Source of the DNA: Apus apus
Taxonomy: Eukaryota > Chordata > Aves > Apodiformes > Apodidae
Direction: 5' to 3'
Length of the DNA stretch: 64,000 bases
Assembly: GCF_020740795.1 (NCBI RefSeq)
Contig: NC_067296.1
Location: 5,681,001-5,745,000, forward strand
Both the position numbers and the translations under genes were made by a program. Of this stretch, positions 1 through 64,000 are shown one piece after another (the stretch's first letter is position 1; each line of letters starts with the position of its first letter). The notes under the pieces were generated by a model. The model was not told where the DNA came from. It ran no database searches and saw only the letters and a list, made by a program, of their open reading frames with translations.

Positions 1-3000
1 GTCCAGGCTGTTCAGATCCGTGGAGACAGAGGACGTGGAAGAAATGCGGGACTTGCTCTCAGCTGCGTCGGGCACTTGCAGGGTGATTTCCTCTGGGCAC
101 TGGCTGGCATCTGCCCCTGGAGGAGACACCGGTAAGAGAAGGAAGAAAAAAGGCTTCTGGAGGTTCTTCATCCCCGGGGCTTCATGGAAAACCCTCCCAA
201 CACTTATCCCTGGGCAGGCTGGGCTTGCCTGGCCCCTCCCAGCAGCTCCCCATGCGGCTGCCGTGGCCGTTTCCCTCCTCAAACCCCCGGCTTGGCTCTG
301 GGCAGGGCTGCACATTCCTTCCCCGTTTTTGGCAGTGGAACCTCTTCCGTCTGGTGTGAAGCCCGGCTGGGAGCCGTGCTGTGTGAGGCTGTCAGCCCCA
401 GCAGGCCAGGAGGTGTTTGGCTTGGCCTCTATGAATCACTACAGCGTGTGTGTGTGTGTGTGGGGAGGAAGGTGCTGGCACCCTGGGCTTCCCCTGCAGG
501 ACCCAAGCCTTGCTGCCTGGGGTCTGGCTGGGAGGTGGAGGGGTTCTGCAGCCTTCCCACTTGGCATGGTGAGCTCTGCAGCATGGTGGGGACCTGGCAA
601 ATCATGACAAGACACAAGACTGCTCCAGAGGAGCTTCAGGACAAGAGAATTCAACCCTCGGACTCTGGGAAGTGCCTGAGTTTCCTTGTTTTCTGCAGTA
701 TAAGGTAGGGTCTGTACCTCTGGGTGGAGGATGGATACTGATGTAGACCAGCCTAGAGTGATGTTCCTCCAGCCTCTCAGATCCCAGCACCAGATATCTC
801 TGTGTGTGTGTGTATCTGCACACAGGGTGGCCAGAGCTGAGGAACAAGCTGGTGTGGGCACTGGGGCCAGGAAGGGCTCCCAGCCTGGCCCGCAAAAGGC
901 TTGGACTGCACATACCTGGCAGGGGCCCAGCAACACTGCTCTCCTCTGTCCCACAGCCAAGAAACACATCCACAGTGTCCTGGTCTGACAGGTCCATCAT
1001 GTCCATCTGCTCCAGCATGTCCACGTTGACCTCCATGGAGGAAATGCTGCCTAAGGGGGCTGCAGAGACCAGTGACAAGGTGAGTGCTAGTGCCAGGGAA
1101 AGGACACCGTGAACCATGTGCAGGCAGGACCCCCAGGAGGGGCCAGCCTTGCTGTGGGGAACAGAATTCCACTGGGAGTCGCCCAGGAAAGCCACATTGC
1201 CTTAAAACACCACTCTGGAATCCCTGGCTGCCTCACTGCCATCCTTTATCCCTGCCCCAAACTGCTGCTCAGAGGAGCCTGTCTGAAGGCAGTGACTACT
1301 CAGGGCGCCAGCCTGGGTACCCATGTGCAGGGACTTCAGCTGCATGGTGTGAGTAATGCACAGCCCGGCCACAGGCAGCATGTGTGGTCCTGTCTCAGGG
1401 CAGGACATGTGTGTCCCCAGCTGCTGGCAGACTGGGGATGTCCCCCTCCTCTCAAACACTCGTGTTGTGGCTCCCTGAAACACCCATGCTGGTGGCTGCA
1501 GCACTTACGTCTCCGGTGCTCTATCTGCAGATGAGACAAAGGGAAGAAGAAATCCATGTCGTGCTGGAAAACCTCCTCAAAGAACTTCTGCCGGTCCCGG
1601 AGTTTCAGCTGCTGCTGCTGCTGCATCTGCTCTGCATCCAGGCTTCGTTGTGCCTGCTCCATGTCAGCTGGGGAGAGAGGTGAGGAAGGTCGGACCAGGC
1701 AGGGCTGTCCGAGCCCTTCTGCCCATCCCAGCTGATGCAGTGTGGCTGTGCTGGGGGGTAGGTGGTTCCCTTCTGCTCTGCTTTATTGATTTAGTCACCA
1801 TGAGTAGATGCTACAGGCTGGAACAGCAGCATCACCAGCACCTGCTGTGCCGGAGCCTCAGATCTCACTTCTGTGATGCAGAGCAGGCAGGAGCTGGGAG
1901 CTCATCTGCTGCCTTCACCACTCCTGAAGGGAATTATGGAGGGGGAAAGGGTGTTGTTATGAGGTTCCTTGCTACAAAACAGAATTATCTGTGAACACCA
2001 ACAAGCAGGGGAAACTCCCAGGGACAGGAACCGGCCTTAGTGCTCCAGGCTTTTTGGGCTGAGGGATGCATAAGGAATAAAAGGCATTAGCAACCCTGTC
2101 ACCCCTGCATCCGCACCCCTGCTGCTGTCACTATAAATACAGCCGCACCCACGCTCGCAGGCTCCTCTGCTCACATCCCCCGCCTGCACAGCCAGCTTGG
2201 CTTCTGCCTGCACAAACATTTTCATTCCTGTAATTCCTCCAGCAGTTCAATGCTGGTGCCCGTGTCCCTGGCTCACACAGAAAGGAGTGATGGGAGCCCT
2301 CAGGCTGTTGCTGAGGGAGGTTGTTGCTGAAGGAGCTTGTTGCTGCATCCCTGGCCCTGGTACCTCCCTTTCAGGGACTACCTGCAGTGCCAGGACCCAA
2401 ATAGCATGGAGGGGCCATGGCTGGTGGCCCTGGCTGTTCCCAGGCTGGTGTTTGACCTAAGCCATTCCAGATTTCCTCTCTGCTGCTTTTGGCCCAGCCG
2501 GTACAAGGAAAATGTGATTACTGGAGCACGCGGTAACCAAGGAAACCAAACAAATATCCTCTGCTCTGCCTGAGTACAGCCCAAACCCTCCACTCCTCTG
2601 GGCTGGGGAGGAGGGAACAAAGGGAGCAGCATCCCCACCCTGTCTGGCAGGAGTGGGGGCGAGGGCAGCAGCAGGGCAGGCTGTCAGCAAGATGTAGTGG
2701 CATAGGACCCAAATGGGAGAGAGGCAGCGGGCCTGGTGAAATGTCCTGGAGATCAAGGTCACATCTTCCTGAGAACCCTTCCAGGGCTCCCTTGCACCCT
2801 GTTTCTGGGGCATCCTTCAGCTAAACCCCCTTGTCTGCAGGTGCCTGCCTGGGAGGCTGGGTTGTGCCTGCAGCACAGCACAGGGGATGCAGCGTGACTC
2901 AGGGTCAGTCACCAAGCAGTTTGTGGAAGAGGCTCTGGTCCTCTTCTGGCTGCTCAGCATCTTCCTGTGGTGCCTGGGGCGTTGAATCTGACTGCCTGAA

Positions 3001-10619: not shown

Positions 10620-11100
10620 GCGATGGGGCCGGGGGCGTAGGGGGCAAGGGCCGGGGTGGTGGGCACGGGGCTGCCCCGGGTGCTCATTAGCCGCGGCCCC
10701 GCCTCCTGCTTAATTAGCCGCGGCCAAAGCCGCTCATTAGCGGCCGCCGGGGCTGGGCGCCCTCCCCGCGGAGGCGGGCGGGGAGCTCTGCCGGCCATGG
10801 GAGCACCGGCACCGACAGCAGCACCGACAGCAGCACCGACAGCAGCACCGACAGCAGCACCGGCACCGACAGCAGCAGCAGCGGGGCTGGAGCCGGAGCC
10901 CGGTGGAGCCGCGGCGGGATGGGGCACGGGCGGGGCACAGCCATGCTGCTCCTCGCCTTGGGTAAGGCTGCCCGGGCGGGGGTCAGGCTGGGGGTGCCCG
11001 GGCGGGCGGTTTGGGGGTACCCGGGCTGTGGAGGAGCCTCTTCCCAGGCGGCCCCTGGGGTGTCCAGGCAGGGGGATGCGGGGTCCCCTCCCTCCTCGCC
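10620..11100 (+). promoter_or_regulatory. GC-rich promoter region of the neuritin-like gene with three ATTAGC-type motifs
   Basis: A CpG-rich block spans the first coding exon. Upstream of it are three related elements: CATTAGCCGCGGCC at 10685-10698, AATTAGCCGCGGCC at 10712-10725 and CATTAGCGGCCGCC at 10735-10748. Each has an ATTA core of the kind bound by homeodomain proteins, fused to a GC-rich tail. No TATA box was seen. The transcription start is not fixed by sequence alone. Confidence 0.5.
10809..10874 (+). repeat. 12-bp minisatellite in the 5' leader of the neuritin-like gene
   Basis: Five copies of GCACCGACAGCA, with one extra half unit (GCACCG) before the last copy, lie 45-110 bp upstream of the chosen start codon. 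An out-of-frame ATG at 10798 in a strong context (GCCATGGGAG) opens a reading frame through the array with a Pro-Thr-Ala-Ala repeat. It would act as an upstream open reading frame if the leader begins before it. Confidence 0.85.
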
Positions 11101-14100
11101 GGGTCGGTGCCGTGCCTCTCTCCCTGGGGGTCCAGGCTGTCGGTGCTGAGCTGGCCGTGCCCCCCGCCTGCCCCTGCCCTGGGGGTGATGGGTGAGGGTG
11201 AGGGGGGCACCCCAACACCTCTGCATCGGCTCCCTGCCCTGGCAGAGCGGCACTTTTGGGCTCTCTGCAAACGCAGGCAGGGCAGGGGACGCCGTGTGTG
11301 CCCTGTGGGGAAGGGGCAGCTCACCCTGCCCGGGTGGCACTGGCTCTGCAGCAGCCCAGGTCACCCCGGGAGCGAGGTGCAGGGCCCCATCGCCTCAGCA
11401 GGTCTGGGTGCTCACGCCGACTCCCCCTCGGTGTCTGGCAGGGCACCTGGCTGGGCTGCTGGCATCAGGCACCACCTGCACCGACATCTACCAAGGCTTC
11501 TCAGACTGCGTCCTCAAGCTGGGGAAGAACATGGCCACATATGAGGATGGGGAGGGCATCGAGCTGCAGGAGCTGCACCGAGTCTGTGGGTGAGTACAGC
11601 CCCACTCCAGGACCCCCTGCCTGTCCTACCCCACGGGGGACAGTCCCTGGAGGTGGGTGGGTTGAGGGGGTTACCTGTGGTGCATGGGCAGCCTGGCTGT
11701 TTGGTATTGACCCTGTGCCAGGTGTTGCTGGCTGAACTCTTCTCTCTCCTGCCCTCCTGGATCCTGTGGGTGTGTGCATACACACACGTGCTCCCCACCT
11801 TGGTTGCATTTCAGACAGACCTGGTGAGCTCCCTGCATCCATCCATCCATCCCTCTGCTGCATGGCTCTGCTTGGAGTTTGCATCCCCTGTGTTTTAGCC
11901 ATAACTTCAGCCTCCAAAACTTGTCCTGTGACTCTCTGCATCCCTGGAGTAGGGCTGGTGGGACCTCACCCCTTTTGCCCTGCAAAAAAGGCTTCCATGG
12001 ACACCTGTGCTTCAGACAGTGACTTGCATGTGGCCAAGGTGTCCCAAGGTCCAGTCCTGCTGGAAGCAGCCTGCACCTGGCCTTGAGCTGGATCCTGCTG
12101 CCCAGACCGAACCCTCTCCCTCCTTCCCTGCTGAGACACTTTGTCCTTTGGGCTTGAATTACTCCCACCCCTGTTTTTTGGGGTTTTTTGTGTGAGTTTG
12201 TAGCAACTGCCCCAAGATGATGGTGTTGAGAGGACATGAACTTTAGGGGAACTGAAGTAGTAGTGAAAGAGCTGGGTAACAAGGGGTGGTGTTGGGCAGG
12301 TTTGGGGAAAGACCTGCTTAAAAAGCAAATGAACAAAAGCAGAGAGGTGGAGGGGCAGGTGAAGGGTGGAAATAAGATGTGTGCAAAAATAAATGGAGGC
12401 AGCTCTGTGTCCCCAGCAGTGAGCTGTGGGCAATGAAAAGGAGGAAATGCAGACAGAAATGAAGGGAAAATCAGAGTACCTTGGGGTGGTGGAAACCTGC
12501 CAGGGCAAGGAGGGCTGAGTGCCCTGTGGGTCAGGATTTCCAAGATGCTGAAAACCACCTCAAGGGCTGGGAGGGGAAGACCTTGCCCTTACTGGTGGAG
12601 TGGAGGCTCTGGGACCTGCTCTGTGGTGCCAGCACAGCTGGTTGACATCTGGCAGGGCTGGGAGACAGCCAGAACAAGGAGCTGGTGCTGCTGCTGAGGC
12701 AAGTAGAGGGTCCCCAACCTTCTTGCCTGCCCCAGCTGAAATACCTAACTTTGATTGTTGCCAGAAGTGGAAAACACTTCAGCAAAACTCTTCTGTTCAA
12801 AAAGAATGGAAAACTACCCACCCCCATTTATATAAAAAAATGTGTTGTCCATTCATTTCCCTGGCAGCAAACACAGCTGGGAGGCTGGCTGGGTGACCTG
12901 CTCTGTCCTCCCCTTCTCCAGGCAACAGCCTAGCTCAGGATGACAGTCCTCTGGGATGTGGCTGAAGGCTGGGATGAAGTGGGAACTGCTGTGCTGGGGG
13001 CTCTAATAGATACTTTTTTTTTTTTTTAACGTGGCATCTTGGTGTTAGAAAGCAACTGAGCATGTGCTGTGGTTGACTGTTGAGGGAGTGATTCCTCTGC
13101 TGAAACTCACGTGAAATGTGTGAGATGAGGCTTTCTACAGGCTCCAGGGCACTGATCATCACAGGTCCTGGGATTTTCCCAGCTGACAGGGCTGGGGCTC
13201 TGCACTGTCTGAGACATGCCAGCTTCTCCTGCCCATCCTGGTGCATGGTCAGCTGCGTTTGCTGTGGCTGGAGGAAAATGTTGAAGATGTCCCAGCATCC
13301 TGACAGAAAATACTTCTGAATAGTTGGCCTTTAACCCTCAGCCTTTTCCTCTGCTGTCTGCATTGCTGGTGCTGTGGTGTCCTCTTTGGGAGTGTGGGTG
13401 AGGGACAGACAGAGCTGGGGCCAGCATGGGGCTGGTGGCATCTTGGCCCCATGTGTGGTGCTGCCCTGGAGGTGGCCTGGGCAAGTCACTTGACAGTGTC
13501 CTGCCTGGTTGGAGCAGATGGAGGCTGTGAAGGGTGAAACACTGGGAATTGCCATCCTGGCTGAAAGCAGAAGCAGGCAGGAGCTGTCATCCCCCTCACC
13601 TTCCCCCAGCCATCTTCTGCCTGAAGACATGGGCCAGGTTTAGCTACTGCTGCAGCTCTGGGGCAAGCACAGGAGGTTACTTGTGTTGGCACCAGCTTTT
13701 CTCATTATCTGGGGACATTTATTCTGCCAGAATGACTCGGTTTAATGAACTCCCTCACAGCTGGCCTTCTGACGTAAGCACTGGCAGGAAAAGTAAGTAA
13801 AGCAGAGTGCCTGGGTTCATGTATCTGCACAAGGTGTAGTCTCCAGGACACTTGGACAAAAAAACCCAGCTGTCCCCTTCCCATGCCCAGGGTCCCCACT
13901 CAGCTGCCTGGGCTGCATCTCCTTCCTGAGGGATGGCACATGTGCCTGCTGTCCTGGTGGGATGTGGGAGGTGGCAGAGAAATTGCTCCTGTCCTCTAGG
14001 CAAATGCACTACAGGGTCATCCCATGTGGTGCTGGACTGGTGGGGTGATGTTCCCTGCACCCCTTCTGGGAGAATTTCCTGGGGCTGTGGTTTTCAGCTC

Positions 14101-15090
14101 TGTGTCTGCTGGGATTTTTCTAGATCTGGAAAAAATCAAAACAAAAAAAAACAAACAAAAAATCCCACAAAAAAAACCCCACAACAAAACAAAAACACCC
14201 CCCCAAAAAAATCCCAAACCCCAAGCTGCCATGCCCAGGGGAGGCAGCCAGGGGGTCTTGAGCAAGCAGCTCCTGGCTTGTTACCACAGGACCATGGGTT
14301 ATCTTTCCTTGTCATTTTGGTTTTCCCTGCTTCTCCCCAAGAGCCTTTTTCCACTGAATGGCTGCTGCTTATTCAGGGTAATACCCAAAATATAAATGGA
14401 GATGTGACTAACCAGAACATGCTGAATAACTTCTCCTGCCCATACCTTAGTTATAAAGCTGTGACCATCTGTGGGAGTTGTTGTCCTTCTCCTTGCTTTG
14501 TGCTTGTGTTTTGCCCTTGACTCAGCTTGGAAGAAGCTGTGAATGAAAGAGGCTGGGCCTTTGTTCCCAGCTGGTTTTAAATACTTGGGGTGCTTGGTGC
14601 CAAAAGGGAGCACTTGTTGATGGAAGATAATGGATTTTATTGACTTCTGGAGGAAGGAAGAAAGAAAAAAGTCGTGGAATATTTTCAGTGTGTTTTGATG
14701 TTTGGAGTTTTAGCAGAGATGCTCTGGGAGATGATGGAGGGGATGACAAAACACAAGAGGTTGCTGCTGCTGGAAGGATGGGCTGGGGCAGCAAAGGCTC
14801 GGCCCAGCTCCTTGGTGCTGTGCTGCTGCAAAGGGCCTGATGGTGTGTGTTTCCCTGCCTGCAGGTACTGGGATGAGTTCCACACGTGTGCCCTGACAGT
14901 GCTCTGGGAGTGCCAGAAAGAAGCAGTGGCCATCTGGGAGATGCTGAGACTGGAATCTCGAAAGATCAAATTTCCAGGCAGCTTGTTCGACCTCTGCAGC
15001 CCCAGCACGGCCCAGAGCTTTGCCTGGACCCACGTTCCCAACGTTTCCACCCTTGGTATCCCCCTCGTCATCACTTGGCTGAATTTATAA
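10919..15090 (+). CDS. Neuritin-family secreted protein, probably GPI-anchored (third family member)
   Basis: Three exons, 10919-10961, 11442-11589 and 14865-15090, join in phase (GTAAGG and GTGAGT donors, CAG acceptors) to give 138 residues. Neuritin (NRN1) has 142. Residues 1 to about 24 form a signal peptide (core MLLLALGHLAGLLA). The mature part has six cysteines (27, 37, 63, 72, 80, 108), matching the neuritin spacing, with family motifs IYQGFSDCVLKLG, YWDEFHTCA and GSLFDLC. A sequon NVS lies at 123-125, and a short hydrophobic tail (LGIPLVITWLNL) fits a GPI signal. Known family role: neuritins are GPI-linked or secreted neurotrophic factors that promote neurite growth and synapse maturation. 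IYQGF resembles NRN1L and FSDC resembles NRN1. The position beside DBNDD2 and SYS1 matches neither human gene. An in-frame Met at 10943 is an alternative start. The family call is firm. The exact paralogue name is not, so no symbol is given. Confidence 0.9.
14130..14215. repeat. A-rich low-complexity tract
   Basis: The tract is made of A runs broken by C or CCC, inside intron 2 of the neuritin-like gene. It has no flanking duplication or tRNA-derived head, so it is simple sequence rather than a recognised SINE. Confidence 0.7.
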
Positions 15091-15872: not shown

Positions 15873-15878
15873 ATTAAA
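15873..15878 (+). terminator. Polyadenylation signal ATTAAA, neuritin-like gene
   Basis: ATTAAA occurs 783 bases after the stop codon and is followed by GT/T-rich sequence, giving a 3' UTR of about 0.8 kb. A canonical AATAAA at 16904-16909 is a possible distal alternative. Choice between them needs transcript data. Confidence 0.45.
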
Positions 15879-20401: not shown

Positions 20402-21794
20402 CTATACGTTGGATTTGGGGGCAGAATTGAGGGGGATTTCCCTGAGTTCTATCCTCATGCAGAGGTACTCCCCGATGGCAGCCATCAGTGCTGTGCAGAC
20501 AATGTGCACCAGCCACCACGTCAGGGTGGAGGGGAAGTGGGAGTTGTAAATCCAGCAGCCCAGGAGGTGGAAGAAGTGAACTGTGACTGTGAAATCCAGG
20601 CACTGCTTTCCTCGCCGGATGAAGTACAGCAAAGCCAGGGCACTGCCAAGAAGAAAGGGATTAGTAAACAAGCCCTGCTGTGCCCATGGGAGATGGGGAT
20701 GCAGTGAAGAGCTACCAGCTGTTGCTGCTAATGATTTAGCTGCTTTAGAACTTCACTGTTTTAAGGATAGGTTGTTTCTGACCTTGCTCCCAGCTGCTTA
20801 CAGATTTCTAATCACCTGATGGCAGGGAAATGAGCTTTTAGTTTAAAAATTCCTGCCCTGCTGCTCTGTACAAACCTCCCCCCAGTAACCTTCGCCTAGT
20901 GGCCAAACACATTTTTGCTTACAGATCAATGTTTGCAGAGATCCATTCATTTTAACCTTCAGTAAAATCTCTCACAGAAGCAAATCCCATCCCCAGCTGG
21001 GAAACTGAGGCAGTGAAGTGAAACGACTTCTCCAGGCTCTCAGAAAAGCCAAGAGTCAGCAGTTCCCAGCTGCCTTCTGCAGACATGCTCAGTCAGGCAT
21101 AGGGCTCTGGGGAGAGGTTTGGAGAGAGGCAGCCGGTCCTGCCGAGTCCTTTGAAGTGTTCCATGTTCGGGAAGAAGCAGCCACAGGTGCTGCAGCCAGC
21201 TGCTGACTTACCAGGTGAGTGCGTTGAGGATGAAGGCCATCATGGAGAGCCTCCCCGGCAGGGTCGAGAAGCCTAAAATCTGCAGGGGATCGTTAGCAGG
21301 AAACCACAGCACCGAGCCCAGCCCAACCAGCACCCAACCCGCTCCCCTGGCCCCGGCTGCACCTGGGCCTGTGTCCGTCCCGAGGGGTACCCCCCAACAG
21401 CTTGGGGGGGGTGTGTTTATCCTGGGGGTGCCTGCAGCACAGGGGGGCTGTCTCTAACCCCGGGGGGGGGTCTGTAACCCCGGGTCTGTCTCTAACCCTG
21501 GGCCTGTCTCTAACCCTGGGCCTGTCTCTAACCCTGGGCCTGTCCCCCCCCCTCAGGACAAGGCCCCCCCCCCCCCCCAGGCCCACAGGCCTCTTCGCCC
21601 AGGGCCGGCCTCCCGGGGCCCCGCGCCCTCACCTCGTCGCTGAAGACCTGGTGAAGGGAGGGCCCGGCGCTGCCCAGGGTGCCGAGCAGGGCGAGCCAGA
21701 GCCCGAGGGAGCTGTAGTAGCCGGCCTGCAGCAGCACCATCTGCGCCAGGATCAGCGCCGGGTCCCACACGTAGCTGCGGAACTGCGCCGCCAT
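20402..21794 (-). CDS. SYS1: SYS1 Golgi trafficking protein
   Basis: Three exons on the minus strand, 21794-21633, 21279-21212 and 20642-20402, join in phase to 156 residues, the same length as human SYS1. Donors are GTGAGG and GTAAGT and acceptors are CAG. Nearly every stretch matches: AAQFRSYVWDP at the N-terminus, LYFIRRGKQCLDFTVTVHFF around 82-101, GEYLCM at 134-139 and the C-terminal EIPLNSAPKSNV. Four hydrophobic segments are visible at about 13-38, 66-86, 93-110 and 115-136. Known role: an integral Golgi membrane protein that recruits acetylated ARFRP1 (yeast Arl3p) to the trans-Golgi and so supports golgin loading and endosome-to-Golgi traffic. The start is fixed by length and homology. 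It is divergent from SDC4, with about 5 kb between start codons. Nothing appears broken. Confidence 0.97.
21448..21538. repeat. 18-bp minisatellite with telomere-like core in SYS1 intron 1
   Basis: Three consecutive 18-bp units of the form CCTGTCTCTAACCCTGGG (first base varying) fill 21485-21538, preceded by two diverged units from 21448. Each unit carries CTAACCC, the telomere hexamer register, but once per unit, so this is not a true interstitial telomere. Confidence 0.85.
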
Positions 21795-22030
21795 CGCCCC
21801 GCGCGCCGCCCGCCGCCGCCGCGCGGCGCCCCCTGGCGCGCCGGAGGACCCAGGTTGCCCGGGGATGTTCGGGGCTGCGGGGGCTGCGGGGGCTGCGGGG
21901 GCTGCGGGGGCTGCTGCCCTGCCCTGCCCTGCCCTGCCCTGCCCTGCTGCCCTGCCCTGCCCTGCTGCCCTGCCCTGCCCTGCTGCCCTGCCCTGCCCTG
22001 CCCTGCCCTGCCCTGCCCCGCGCAGCTCCA
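21560..22030 (-). promoter_or_regulatory. SYS1: SYS1 CpG-rich promoter region
   Basis: GC- and CpG-rich DNA covers the first SYS1 exon and the 200 bp upstream of its ATG. No TATA box was noticed. The upstream flank consists largely of short tandem repeats (21871-22017), so the core promoter must lie within or right beside them. Confidence 0.6.
21871..22017. repeat. Two adjoining short tandem arrays upstream of SYS1
   Basis: About five copies of the 9-mer GGGGCTGCG at 21871-21911 are followed by an array of CCCTG pentamers with interspersed CTG insertions to 22017. The arrays start about 75 bp upstream of the SYS1 start codon. The G-rich strand of each could form quadruplex-like structures. 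Length variation between individuals is likely. Confidence 0.9.
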
Positions 22031-41800: not shown

Positions 41801-43378
41801 TTCCCTGCACACCCTCCTGCTTTCAGTTGCAGGCAGGCTGGGTGCTGCTTACTGATGGGTGTGGTTTGTCTGTATTCTGTAGATATCTGACAACTATATC
41901 CCTGGAGATACTGAGAGAAAGATAGAAGGTGAGAAGAAAAACACAATGCTGGACAATGAAATCATTCCAGACAAAGCTGTACCTGTCGAAGAGAACCTGT
42001 CCAACAAGATCTCCATGGCAAGCACAGCCAACAGCAGCATCTTCGAAAGAACAGAAGTCCTTACAGGTAATAATCCACCTTGTCCTGATCAATCATTAAT
42101 ACTGTAAGACAAAATGGCTTCTATTGTTTCCTGTTTCTCTGGGGAGTGGTTCCACTGCTGACAAGGGGAGGGAGATGCAGTCAGTACCTCTGTGACTACC
42201 TGTAGCAGGGTCACTTCTGCCTTCTAGTCCTTAAACAGCCGAAGTTTACTAGGGTAAACATGTTGGTTTTGAGCCTGCCAGCTGGCTCTTGCCTTAAGTG
42301 CCACCCAAATCATGTGGCAGCTGCTCTGCACCCAGTTTCTACATCAACAAGAGGTGTATCTGGCCATAAATCAATGACATCATGGATTTTCATATAAAAT
42401 GCAGCTGTTTTTCCTTCTAACCTCACCCCAAGTCCTGCTTTTTCTGAGCCTTGCCAGGAACAAAACAACCTCTCTCAGGGCTTTGAACACCCAGTCAACT
42501 GTTTCAATTTAAGTATCTCTGTCAAGAGTAAAACCAAGCAATTGACTCCCCCTCAGCATGTGGGACAGGTCTGTCCCTAGGAAAGCTTCATCAGACACTT
42601 GTGTCAATGGTCTGAGTGCAAACCTTGGCACCTCTTCCCAATCTGCAGCCATCTTCCCAGCTGGAGGAGTGGATTGCAAAGCTACCCCACAAATGAGTTG
42701 ATGCAGTGCAATGAGTAGGTGTCACAGCAAAGGATAAGCTCCACTGAAGTCTTGTGGCCACCCTTGGTGTGAGGGGAGAGAAGATCGTGGTGGTTTTTTG
42801 TGGGTTTGTGGTTTTTGGTTGTTGGAAGGAGGTGGTGGTGCCAGTGGGTTGTTGCTGCTGTTTAATGGAAATAGAGTCCCCAGACTGTGCTCACACTGTG
42901 CGTTGTGGTGGGGCTTTTTTTGGGGTCAGTTCTTTGGTTTCATCTCCACGCAGGGAGGATGACTTTTTGTCAATGTGTTTTTCTCGCACTACACTGGAAG
43001 ATGAACACAAACTGATTAATGTGGAACGTGTGATCATTCCCTAGTTGAAAAGCAATTTCTGGCCTTTCCCAACAACATCTGTCACTGAAGTTGCCAGCAG
43101 ACGGTGACTCTGGAGGCAGGTCTGGGGGCTGGTGCTCCTGGAGGAGATTGTGAGATGTAGCTGATGGTTTGGAGTTGTCCAGGAGTTGAGACTTATTCTG
43201 TGCTCTTTTTTTTGTTATCTCCCCAGCTCTCATTGCAGGAGGGGCAGTGGGCCTCCTGTTTGCTGTCTTCCTCATCCTCCTCTTAGTCTATCGCATGAAG
43301 AAGAAGGACGAGGGCAGTTACGACCTTGGGAAGAAACCCATCTACAAGAAAGCCCCTACAAACGAGTTCTATGCTTAA
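26893..43378 (+). CDS. SDC4: Syndecan-4, transmembrane heparan sulfate proteoglycan
   Basis: Five exons join in phase to 204 residues: 26893-26976, 40524-40665, 41596-41648, 41883-42066 and 43227-43378. Residues 1 to about 25 are a Leu-rich signal peptide. The ectodomain has three Ser-Gly glycosaminoglycan sites (Ser45, Ser72, Ser74) among acidic residues, a cell-binding region rich in Lys, and one sequon (NSS). The transmembrane helix runs from about 155 to 176 and carries a GxxxG dimer motif (Gly159, Gly163). The cytoplasmic tail keeps C1 ([12 protein letters not shown]), the variable LGKKPIYKK that binds PIP2 and PKC-alpha, and the C-terminal EFYA PDZ ligand. Known role: focal-adhesion co-receptor with integrins and growth-factor receptor partner. 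Cytoplasmic and membrane parts are as in chicken. The ectodomain around 77-93 differs, arguing for a bird other than chicken. Intron 1 is 13.5 kb and the gene is intact. Confidence 0.98.
27235..27300 (+). repeat. C-rich tandem tract in SDC4 intron 1
   Basis: Long C runs are separated by GGGCTGT, repeated about three times, within the CpG island that extends from the promoter into intron 1. It is simple sequence and prone to length change. Confidence 0.75.
27420..40523 (+). other. SDC4 intron 1, body
   Basis: This long intron has no recognisable conserved exon in either direction. It contains poly-T and poly-A runs (near 31433-31456, 33505-33535, 36826-36855) and no identifiable interspersed repeat. 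It probably holds enhancers, but I can point to none with confidence. Confidence 0.6.

Positions 43379-56233: not shown

Positions 56234-64000
<7,767 letters not shown>

What the first reader, a model, noticed from the sequence alone, without database searches (positions are those of the whole stretch)
10919..15090. An intact third neuritin-family gene between DBNDD2 and SYS1
The three-exon gene encodes all six neuritin cysteines, a signal peptide and a probable GPI tail. It sits where human has TP53TG5, whereas human NRN1 (6p25) and NRN1L (16q22) lie elsewhere. DBNDD2 on 20q and its paralogue DBNDD1 on 16q belong to a known 16q/20q paralogy. A neuritin gene here is therefore best explained as the 20q partner of NRN1L, kept in this lineage and lost or overlooked in placental mammals. 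It may be a little-described neurotrophic or synaptic ligand.
Basis: partly seen in the sequence, partly recalled or inferred. Interest (0 to 1): 0.75.

Follow-up and report, generated by a model that had tools for sequence, protein, structure and literature searches.

The report
Third neuritin gene in a swift
A swift carries an intact third gene for a neuritin-type nerve-growth signal; the gene appears to be old, is shared with other birds and reptiles and probably with bony fishes, goes under misleading names in databases, and seems to be missing in mammals.

Summary
Window 10919-15090(+) encodes an intact three-exon, 138-residue neuritin with six cysteines (Pfam NRN1 E=5.6e-39), between DBNDD2 and SYS1. 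It contains the Apus apus RefSeq 'neuritin-like' protein in full, so the window is a common swift or very near. The gene is already annotated in many sauropsids, but under mixed names; chicken and guineafowl records call it 'TP53-target gene 5', though they match only neuritin. In trees it forms a sauropsid group apart from NRN1 and mammalian NRN1L; a bird-only or sauropsid-only duplication of NRN1 is rejected. A coho salmon gene list puts 'nrn1b' beside sys1; an Atlantic salmon list puts NRN1LA among 16q-type genes. Best reading: three ancestral neuritin loci, the 20q-type one lost in mammals. Not shown: union with the fish genes (90/62), nearest sister, whether swifts have NRN1L, GPI anchoring, function. 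What is new is recognising the paralogue and its misnaming, not an unannotated gene.

The parts
10919..10961 (+). Neuritin exon 1 (start codon, signal peptide start); phase-1 intron follows
11442..11589 (+). Neuritin exon 2 (Cys27, Cys37, Cys63)
   Evidence: Pfam
14865..15090 (+). Neuritin exon 3 (Cys72, Cys80, Cys108, hydrophobic tail, stop TAA 15088-15090)
   Evidence: Pfam
15873..15878 (+). only A(A/T)TAAA candidate poly(A) signal between 15091 and 16500 (consensus match only)
10802..10882 (+). tandem repeat region in the probable 5' leader (12-base unit, 4.5 copies at 10809-10862), with an upstream out-of-frame ATG at 10797
   Evidence: frame worked out from the sequence
953..1608 (-). flank: DBNDD2 (two exon matches, 953-1057 and 1510-1608)
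20405..21785 (-). flank: SYS1 (three exon matches, 20405-20650, 21214-21282, 21600-21785)

Best explanation
This is the third neuritin gene of bony vertebrates, at an ancestral 20q-type locus beside SYS1. It most likely arose with NRN1 (6p) and NRN1L (16q) in the early vertebrate genome duplications. It was kept in birds, crocodilians, turtles and lizards and, as 'nrn1b', in teleosts, and was lost in the mammalian lineage, where TP53TG5 now fills the slot. Mechanism (inferred from NRN1, not shown here): the product enters the secretory pathway, folds as a small helical domain held by three disulphides, is probably fixed to the outer membrane by a GPI anchor and can be released, and acts on neighbouring cells as a growth, survival or synapse-maturation signal.
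For: Intact gene and family. Spread: 46 bird, 2 crocodilian, 4 turtle and 1 lizard named rows of 66 hits, plus 3 fish and 10 unnamed (hand count). Tree of 58 rows that I chose: third 95/87, NRN1 96/93, NRN1L 100/100, fish 100/100. NRN1 there includes salamanders, platypus, marsupials, turtles, tuatara and birds, so the split from NRN1 is at least tetrapod-old; bird-only duplication is worse by 116 lnL units, p=7.5e-5, sauropsid-only by 37.6, p=3.6e-5. Protein models of both genes with other first exons join 11 residues before Cys1, where the window's intron 1 lies. Emu has both NRN1 (P0238) and the third gene (P0018); so does the genus Gopherus, in two different species. Coho salmon chr1:33,174,438-33,714,143 lists nrn1b next to sys1, with elmo2, tbc1d20, trib3, rbck1 and arfgap1 (PMC8102513 Table 2 passage). 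An Atlantic salmon list has NRN1LA amid RANBP10, NUTF2, EDC4, PSKH1 (PMC6786245 passage).
Against: Union of third and fish is not significant: 90/62, 97/39 on a 95-residue cut from Cys1; AU does not reject fish+NRN1 (p 0.285; 0.47 on the cut) or fish+NRN1L (p 0.391; 0.435). The third group itself is 84/90 on the cut and 90/92 with two fish rows only. No invertebrate outgroup and no non-mammalian NRN1L entered the tree, so root and nearest sister are open. The coho stretch is mixed: by recall 6 of its 20 listed genes are human chromosome 20, about 8 are 12q13, and ssr1 is at human 6p24 near NRN1, which would also suit nrn1b being of NRN1 type. No salmonid sequence was read; percomorph rows are tied to coho nrn1b by name only. 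Whether the swift has NRN1 and NRN1L could not be checked (genome search did not complete). Mammalian absence rests on cut listings (120 of 266, 120 of 364). Function, expression and GPI attachment were not tested.
Confidence: 0.78

Rival explanations
1. It is the sauropsid orthologue of mammalian NRN1L, and one of the two has moved; there were only two ancestral neuritin genes.
For: No named non-mammalian NRN1L was recognised among the listed hits (all but cut at 120); by commonest residue, third and NRN1L share 4 core states not found in fish or NRN1; an unrooted tree of single-origin groups cannot exclude it.
Against: Salmon lists show an nrn1l gene among 16q-type genes and an nrn1b gene beside sys1, two separate loci; third is less like NRN1L (42-43% mean core identity) than like fish (55-56%) or NRN1 (49%), though NRN1L is on a long branch.
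Confidence: 0.1
2. Recent bird or sauropsid duplicate of NRN1.
For: Same family and shared intron 1 position.
Against: Rejected at bird level (p 7.5e-5) and sauropsid level (p 3.6e-5); 49-52% mean core identity to bird NRN1.
Confidence: 0.01
3. The gene is the bird TP53TG5, as chicken and guineafowl RefSeq names say.
For: Same slot between SYS1 and DBNDD2 (PMC3426482 Fig. 4 legend, passages); chicken P0024 (isoform X3) and guineafowl P0025 (isoform X2) carry the name.
Against: P0025 matches Pfam NRN1 only, and P0024 NRN1 plus a sub-threshold DUF19 match; human TP53TG5 (letters from memory) finds none of 258 fetched neuritins at E<=10 and nothing better than E=0.32 in the window. Other isoforms of the chicken gene were not seen.
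Confidence: 0.02
4. A decaying or non-functional copy.
For: It evolves faster than NRN1 (mean bird core identity 79% over seven rows, against 100% in three bird NRN1 rows); many automated models lack the signal exon.
Against: Six cysteines in the 95-residue cut in 17 of 19 third rows and seven in the other two; intact splice sites and frame in the window; a gene called TP53TG5 is measured in chicken and duck muscle, probably this one.
Confidence: 0.03

Closest known systems
NRN1 (neuritin, CPG15)
   Same: Six-cysteine NRN1 domain (PF15056), intron 1 at the same place 11 residues before Cys1, hydrophobic N-terminus and tail.
   Different: 49-52% mean core identity; separate group in the tree; faster evolving; tail less hydrophobic (KD 1.28 over the last 16 residues, against 2.06 in a curlew NRN1); locus between DBNDD2 and SYS1.
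NRN1L (CPG15-2)
   Same: Same domain and six cysteines; its locus (16q22, recalled) and DBNDD1 (16q24.3, PMC9510119 passage) mirror this gene and DBNDD2.
   Different: 42-43% mean core identity; gaps in 14 of 14 NRN1L rows at positions 46, 49 and 50 of P0001; longer tail after the domain (orangutan).
teleost nrn1b / 'neuritin-like' (percomorph rows such as P0082, P0089)
   Same: Closest non-sauropsid rows found (55-56% mean core identity); coho nrn1b listed next to sys1; 9 core columns where the commonest residue is shared by third and fish only.
   Different: Sequon at offset 24 from Cys1 in 12 of 12 fish rows; union with the sauropsid group lacks significant support.

Membership tests
Neuritin family (PF15056) | NRN1 domain above Pfam's gathering score | tested here: met
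   132.7 bits against 27, residues 27-113, profile 1-88 of 89
Neuritin family (PF15056) | six conserved cysteines | tested here: met
   Cys 27, 37, 63, 72, 80, 108; the six are invariant across the 57 rows of A3
Neuritin family (PF15056) | N-terminal signal peptide | tested here: inconclusive
   hydrophobic N-terminus, best 14-residue KD 2.14, curlew NRN1 2.15; no predictor or experiment
Neuritin family (PF15056) | C-terminal GPI attachment | tested here: inconclusive
   tail KD 1.28, weaker than curlew NRN1 2.06
Neuritin family (PF15056) | neurite-growth, survival or synapse activity | not testable with these tools
   needs protein and cells
NRN1L orthologue | locus between EDC4 and PSKH1 | tested here: not met
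   lies between DBNDD2 and SYS1; the EDC4-PSKH1 position of human NRN1L is recalled
NRN1L orthologue | groups with NRN1L in a rooted tree | tested here: inconclusive
   no outgroup; no non-mammalian NRN1L
NRN1 recent duplicate | nests with bird or sauropsid NRN1 | tested here: not met
   AU p 7.5e-5 and 3.6e-5
TP53TG5 | sequence similarity to mammalian TP53TG5 | tested here: not met
2R ohnologue set with NRN1 and NRN1L | member of a multi-gene paralogy block (DTNBP1/DBNDD1/DBNDD2 beside NRN1/NRN1L/third) | tested here: inconclusive
   DBNDD2 neighbour seen; DBNDD1 at 16q24.3, though the same passage reports doubt whether DBNDD1 and DBNDD2 are true dysbindin paralogues; the rest recalled; no block-wide statistic run

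The most novel reading that the evidence does not exclude
Mammalian TP53TG5 was built on the remains of the lost third neuritin gene: it sits in the same slot, and by recall in the same orientation, between SYS1 and DBNDD2, so it may have taken over the old gene's promoter or exons while the neuritin frame was lost.
Probability: 0.1. Interest if true: 0.7.

Novelty: new member of a known kind. Interest (0 to 1): 0.45.

Why it matters
A 2026 paper says that Fujino et al. [quoted passage not shown] In birds and reptiles, and probably in fish, the family has this further member. Studies of neuritin in chick, songbird or zebrafish that leave it out may miss redundancy. The gene hides under several names, one of them wrong: avian expression hits reported as 'TP53TG5' (chicken leg muscle, duck breast muscle) probably concern a secreted neuritin rather than a p53 target. 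The mammalian loss, if confirmed, gives a natural comparison for what the extra ligand does.
Full report
WHAT IS THERE. Three exons at 10919-10961, 11442-11589 and 14865-15090 on the + strand join into 417 nt that encode 138 residues and a TAA, with GT-AG introns and six cysteines. Pfam gives NRN1 (PF15056) at E=5.6e-39. The 130-residue Apus apus RefSeq 'neuritin-like' protein lies inside it letter for letter, so the window is the common swift or a very close relative. The RefSeq model starts at the second methionine; the longer start used here is seen in many other birds.

SURROUNDINGS. A syndecan-type C-terminus on + ends at 43378, and RBPJ-like motifs lie on - at 60532-60558 and 62160-62189; naming these SDC4 and RBPJL rests on recalled motifs and gene order. 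A 2012 paper's figure legend gives SYS1, TP53TG5 and DBNDD2 upstream of PIGT as conserved in mammals and chicken (PMC3426482, passages). So the neuritin sits in the slot that mammals give to TP53TG5.

ALREADY ANNOTATED, UNDER MIXED NAMES. Of 66 proteins found with the swift sequence, 53 are named sauropsid rows (46 birds, 2 crocodilians, 4 turtles, 1 lizard), 3 are fish and 10 are unnamed (counted by hand). More lizards and many percomorph fish came from a profile search, with 120 of 266 hits listed. The chicken row (isoform X3) and the guineafowl row (isoform X2) are called TP53-target gene 5. Both pass Pfam's cut-off for neuritin only; the chicken row also has a sub-threshold DUF19 match. 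Human TP53TG5 (letters from memory) finds none of 258 fetched neuritins at E<=10 and nothing better than E=0.32 in the window. The name therefore looks like a transfer by gene order. Other isoforms of the chicken gene were not seen.

AGE AND KINSHIP. In a tree of 58 rows (57 picked out of 258 fetched, plus the window), the sauropsid gene (19 rows), NRN1 (13), mammalian NRN1L (14) and percomorph fish (12) each form one group: 95/87, 96/93, 100/100 and 100/100. On a 95-residue cut from Cys1 the sauropsid group falls to 84/90, and with two fish rows only it is 90/92. A joint origin with bird NRN1 only, or with sauropsid NRN1 only, is rejected (p 7.5e-5; p 3.6e-5). As NRN1 here includes salamanders and mammals, the split is at least tetrapod-old. 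The fish rows join the sauropsid gene in the best tree at 90/62 (97/39 on the cut), but fish+NRN1 (p 0.285; 0.47) and fish+NRN1L (p 0.391; 0.435) are not rejected. Of 26 core columns where the commonest residue links two groups only, 9 link third and fish, 6 third and NRN1, 5 fish and NRN1, 4 third and NRN1L, 2 fish and NRN1L; columns linking NRN1 and NRN1L only were not counted. The program warns that the long NRN1 and NRN1L branches meet, so the order of the groups should not be read from the tree.

GENE ORDER IN FISH. Two salmon papers supply what the tree cannot. In coho salmon, a 0.54 Mb stretch of chromosome 1, annotated by NCBI, lists 20 genes with nrn1b next to sys1, and elmo2, tbc1d20, trib3, rbck1 and arfgap1 (PMC8102513, Table 2 passage and methods passages). 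By recall, sys1 and these five are human chromosome 20 genes. Against a clean reading: about eight others are 12q13 genes by recall, and ssr1 is at human 6p24, near NRN1. Whether the printed order is the order on the chromosome is not stated in the passages seen. In Atlantic salmon, a list merged from several regions, with names taken from zebrafish hits, runs RANBP10, NUTF2, EDC4, NRN1LA and soon after PSKH1 (PMC6786245, passages), the human 16q22 neighbourhood (recalled). Two percomorph rows bear the name 'Neuritin 1b' (P0082, P0089) and fall in the fish group; no salmonid sequence was read, so the tie to coho nrn1b is by name. Together these suggest that teleosts have a SYS1-linked neuritin and a 16q-type NRN1L at separate places, as three ancestral loci predict. 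Human NRN1 at 6p25 near DTNBP1 at 6p22 (recalled), DBNDD1 at 16q24.3 (PMC9510119, passage) and DBNDD2 beside the third gene suggest one duplicated block, though that same passage reports doubt about how close the dysbindin relatives are. On this view the gene is the partner of NRN1 as much as of NRN1L.

GENE STRUCTURE. Mammalian NRN1 protein models with other first exons join the common sequence 11 residues before the first cysteine. Bird models of the third gene with other first exons join at the same spot, and the window's intron 1 is there too, in phase 1. That the NRN1 joins are intron positions is inferred from proteins. Intron 2 of NRN1 was not examined.

LOSS IN MAMMALS. No named mammalian protein appeared among the 66 hits or the 120 listed. 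The third search listed mammalian NRN1 (including platypus and marsupials) and NRN1L, but I recognised no mammalian third gene among its best 120 of 364. The listings are cut, so loss is the likely reading and not a proof; the same holds for the absence of amphibian rows of the third gene.

FUNCTION. Inferred from NRN1: a GPI-anchored or released ligand that supports neurite growth and synapse maturation (reviews PMC6502786 and PMC12715718, passages). Nothing here shows it. The tail is less hydrophobic than that of a bird NRN1, so anchoring is less certain than the finding implies. A gene called TP53TG5 is among nine genes checked by qPCR in chicken leg muscle (PMC6221307, passage) and is in the top-ten down-regulated list for duck breast muscle E21 versus E27 (PMC10049352, passages). 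If the name is used there as in chicken RefSeq, these are expression hints for this gene. In duck, one protein record is named 'neuritin-like' (P0023), so the link is less sure there. A role at muscle or neuromuscular contacts is a guess I would put near one in three.

VERDICT. An ordinary member of a known family by sequence, and an interesting one by history: an old third neuritin, apparently dropped by mammals and hidden by poor names. The decisive whole-genome check (does the swift also have NRN1L?) could not be run, because the genome search did not complete in 23 tries.

Noticed in passing
P0024, P0025 (chicken, guineafowl): RefSeq calls the neuritin gene 'TP53-target gene 5 protein'; the name also entered print as a conserved chicken gene (PMC3426482, passages) and probably as muscle expression hits.
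   Followed up: partly
window 10797-10919: An upstream out-of-frame ATG and a GCACCGACAGCA tandem repeat (10809-10862, 4.5 copies, 100% matches) precede the start codon; possible translational control, untested.
   Followed up: no
bird and mammal neuritin models: Many automated models of both NRN1 and the third gene replace exon 1 by other N-termini; real alternative promoters or artefacts.
   Followed up: no
fish rows, offset 24 from Cys1: An N-glycosylation sequon sits there in 12 of 12 percomorph rows; it is not among the offsets listed for the other groups, of which at most six per group were printed.
   Followed up: no
window 21444-22000: GC-rich tandem repeats (18-base and 5-base units among others) lie between and upstream of the SYS1 exon matches.
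   Followed up: no
coho salmon chr1:33.17-33.71 Mb (PMC8102513): The stretch with nrn1b and sys1 also lists ssr1, a human 6p24 gene by recall; it may mean mixed ancestry of the block or different losses after duplication.
   Followed up: no
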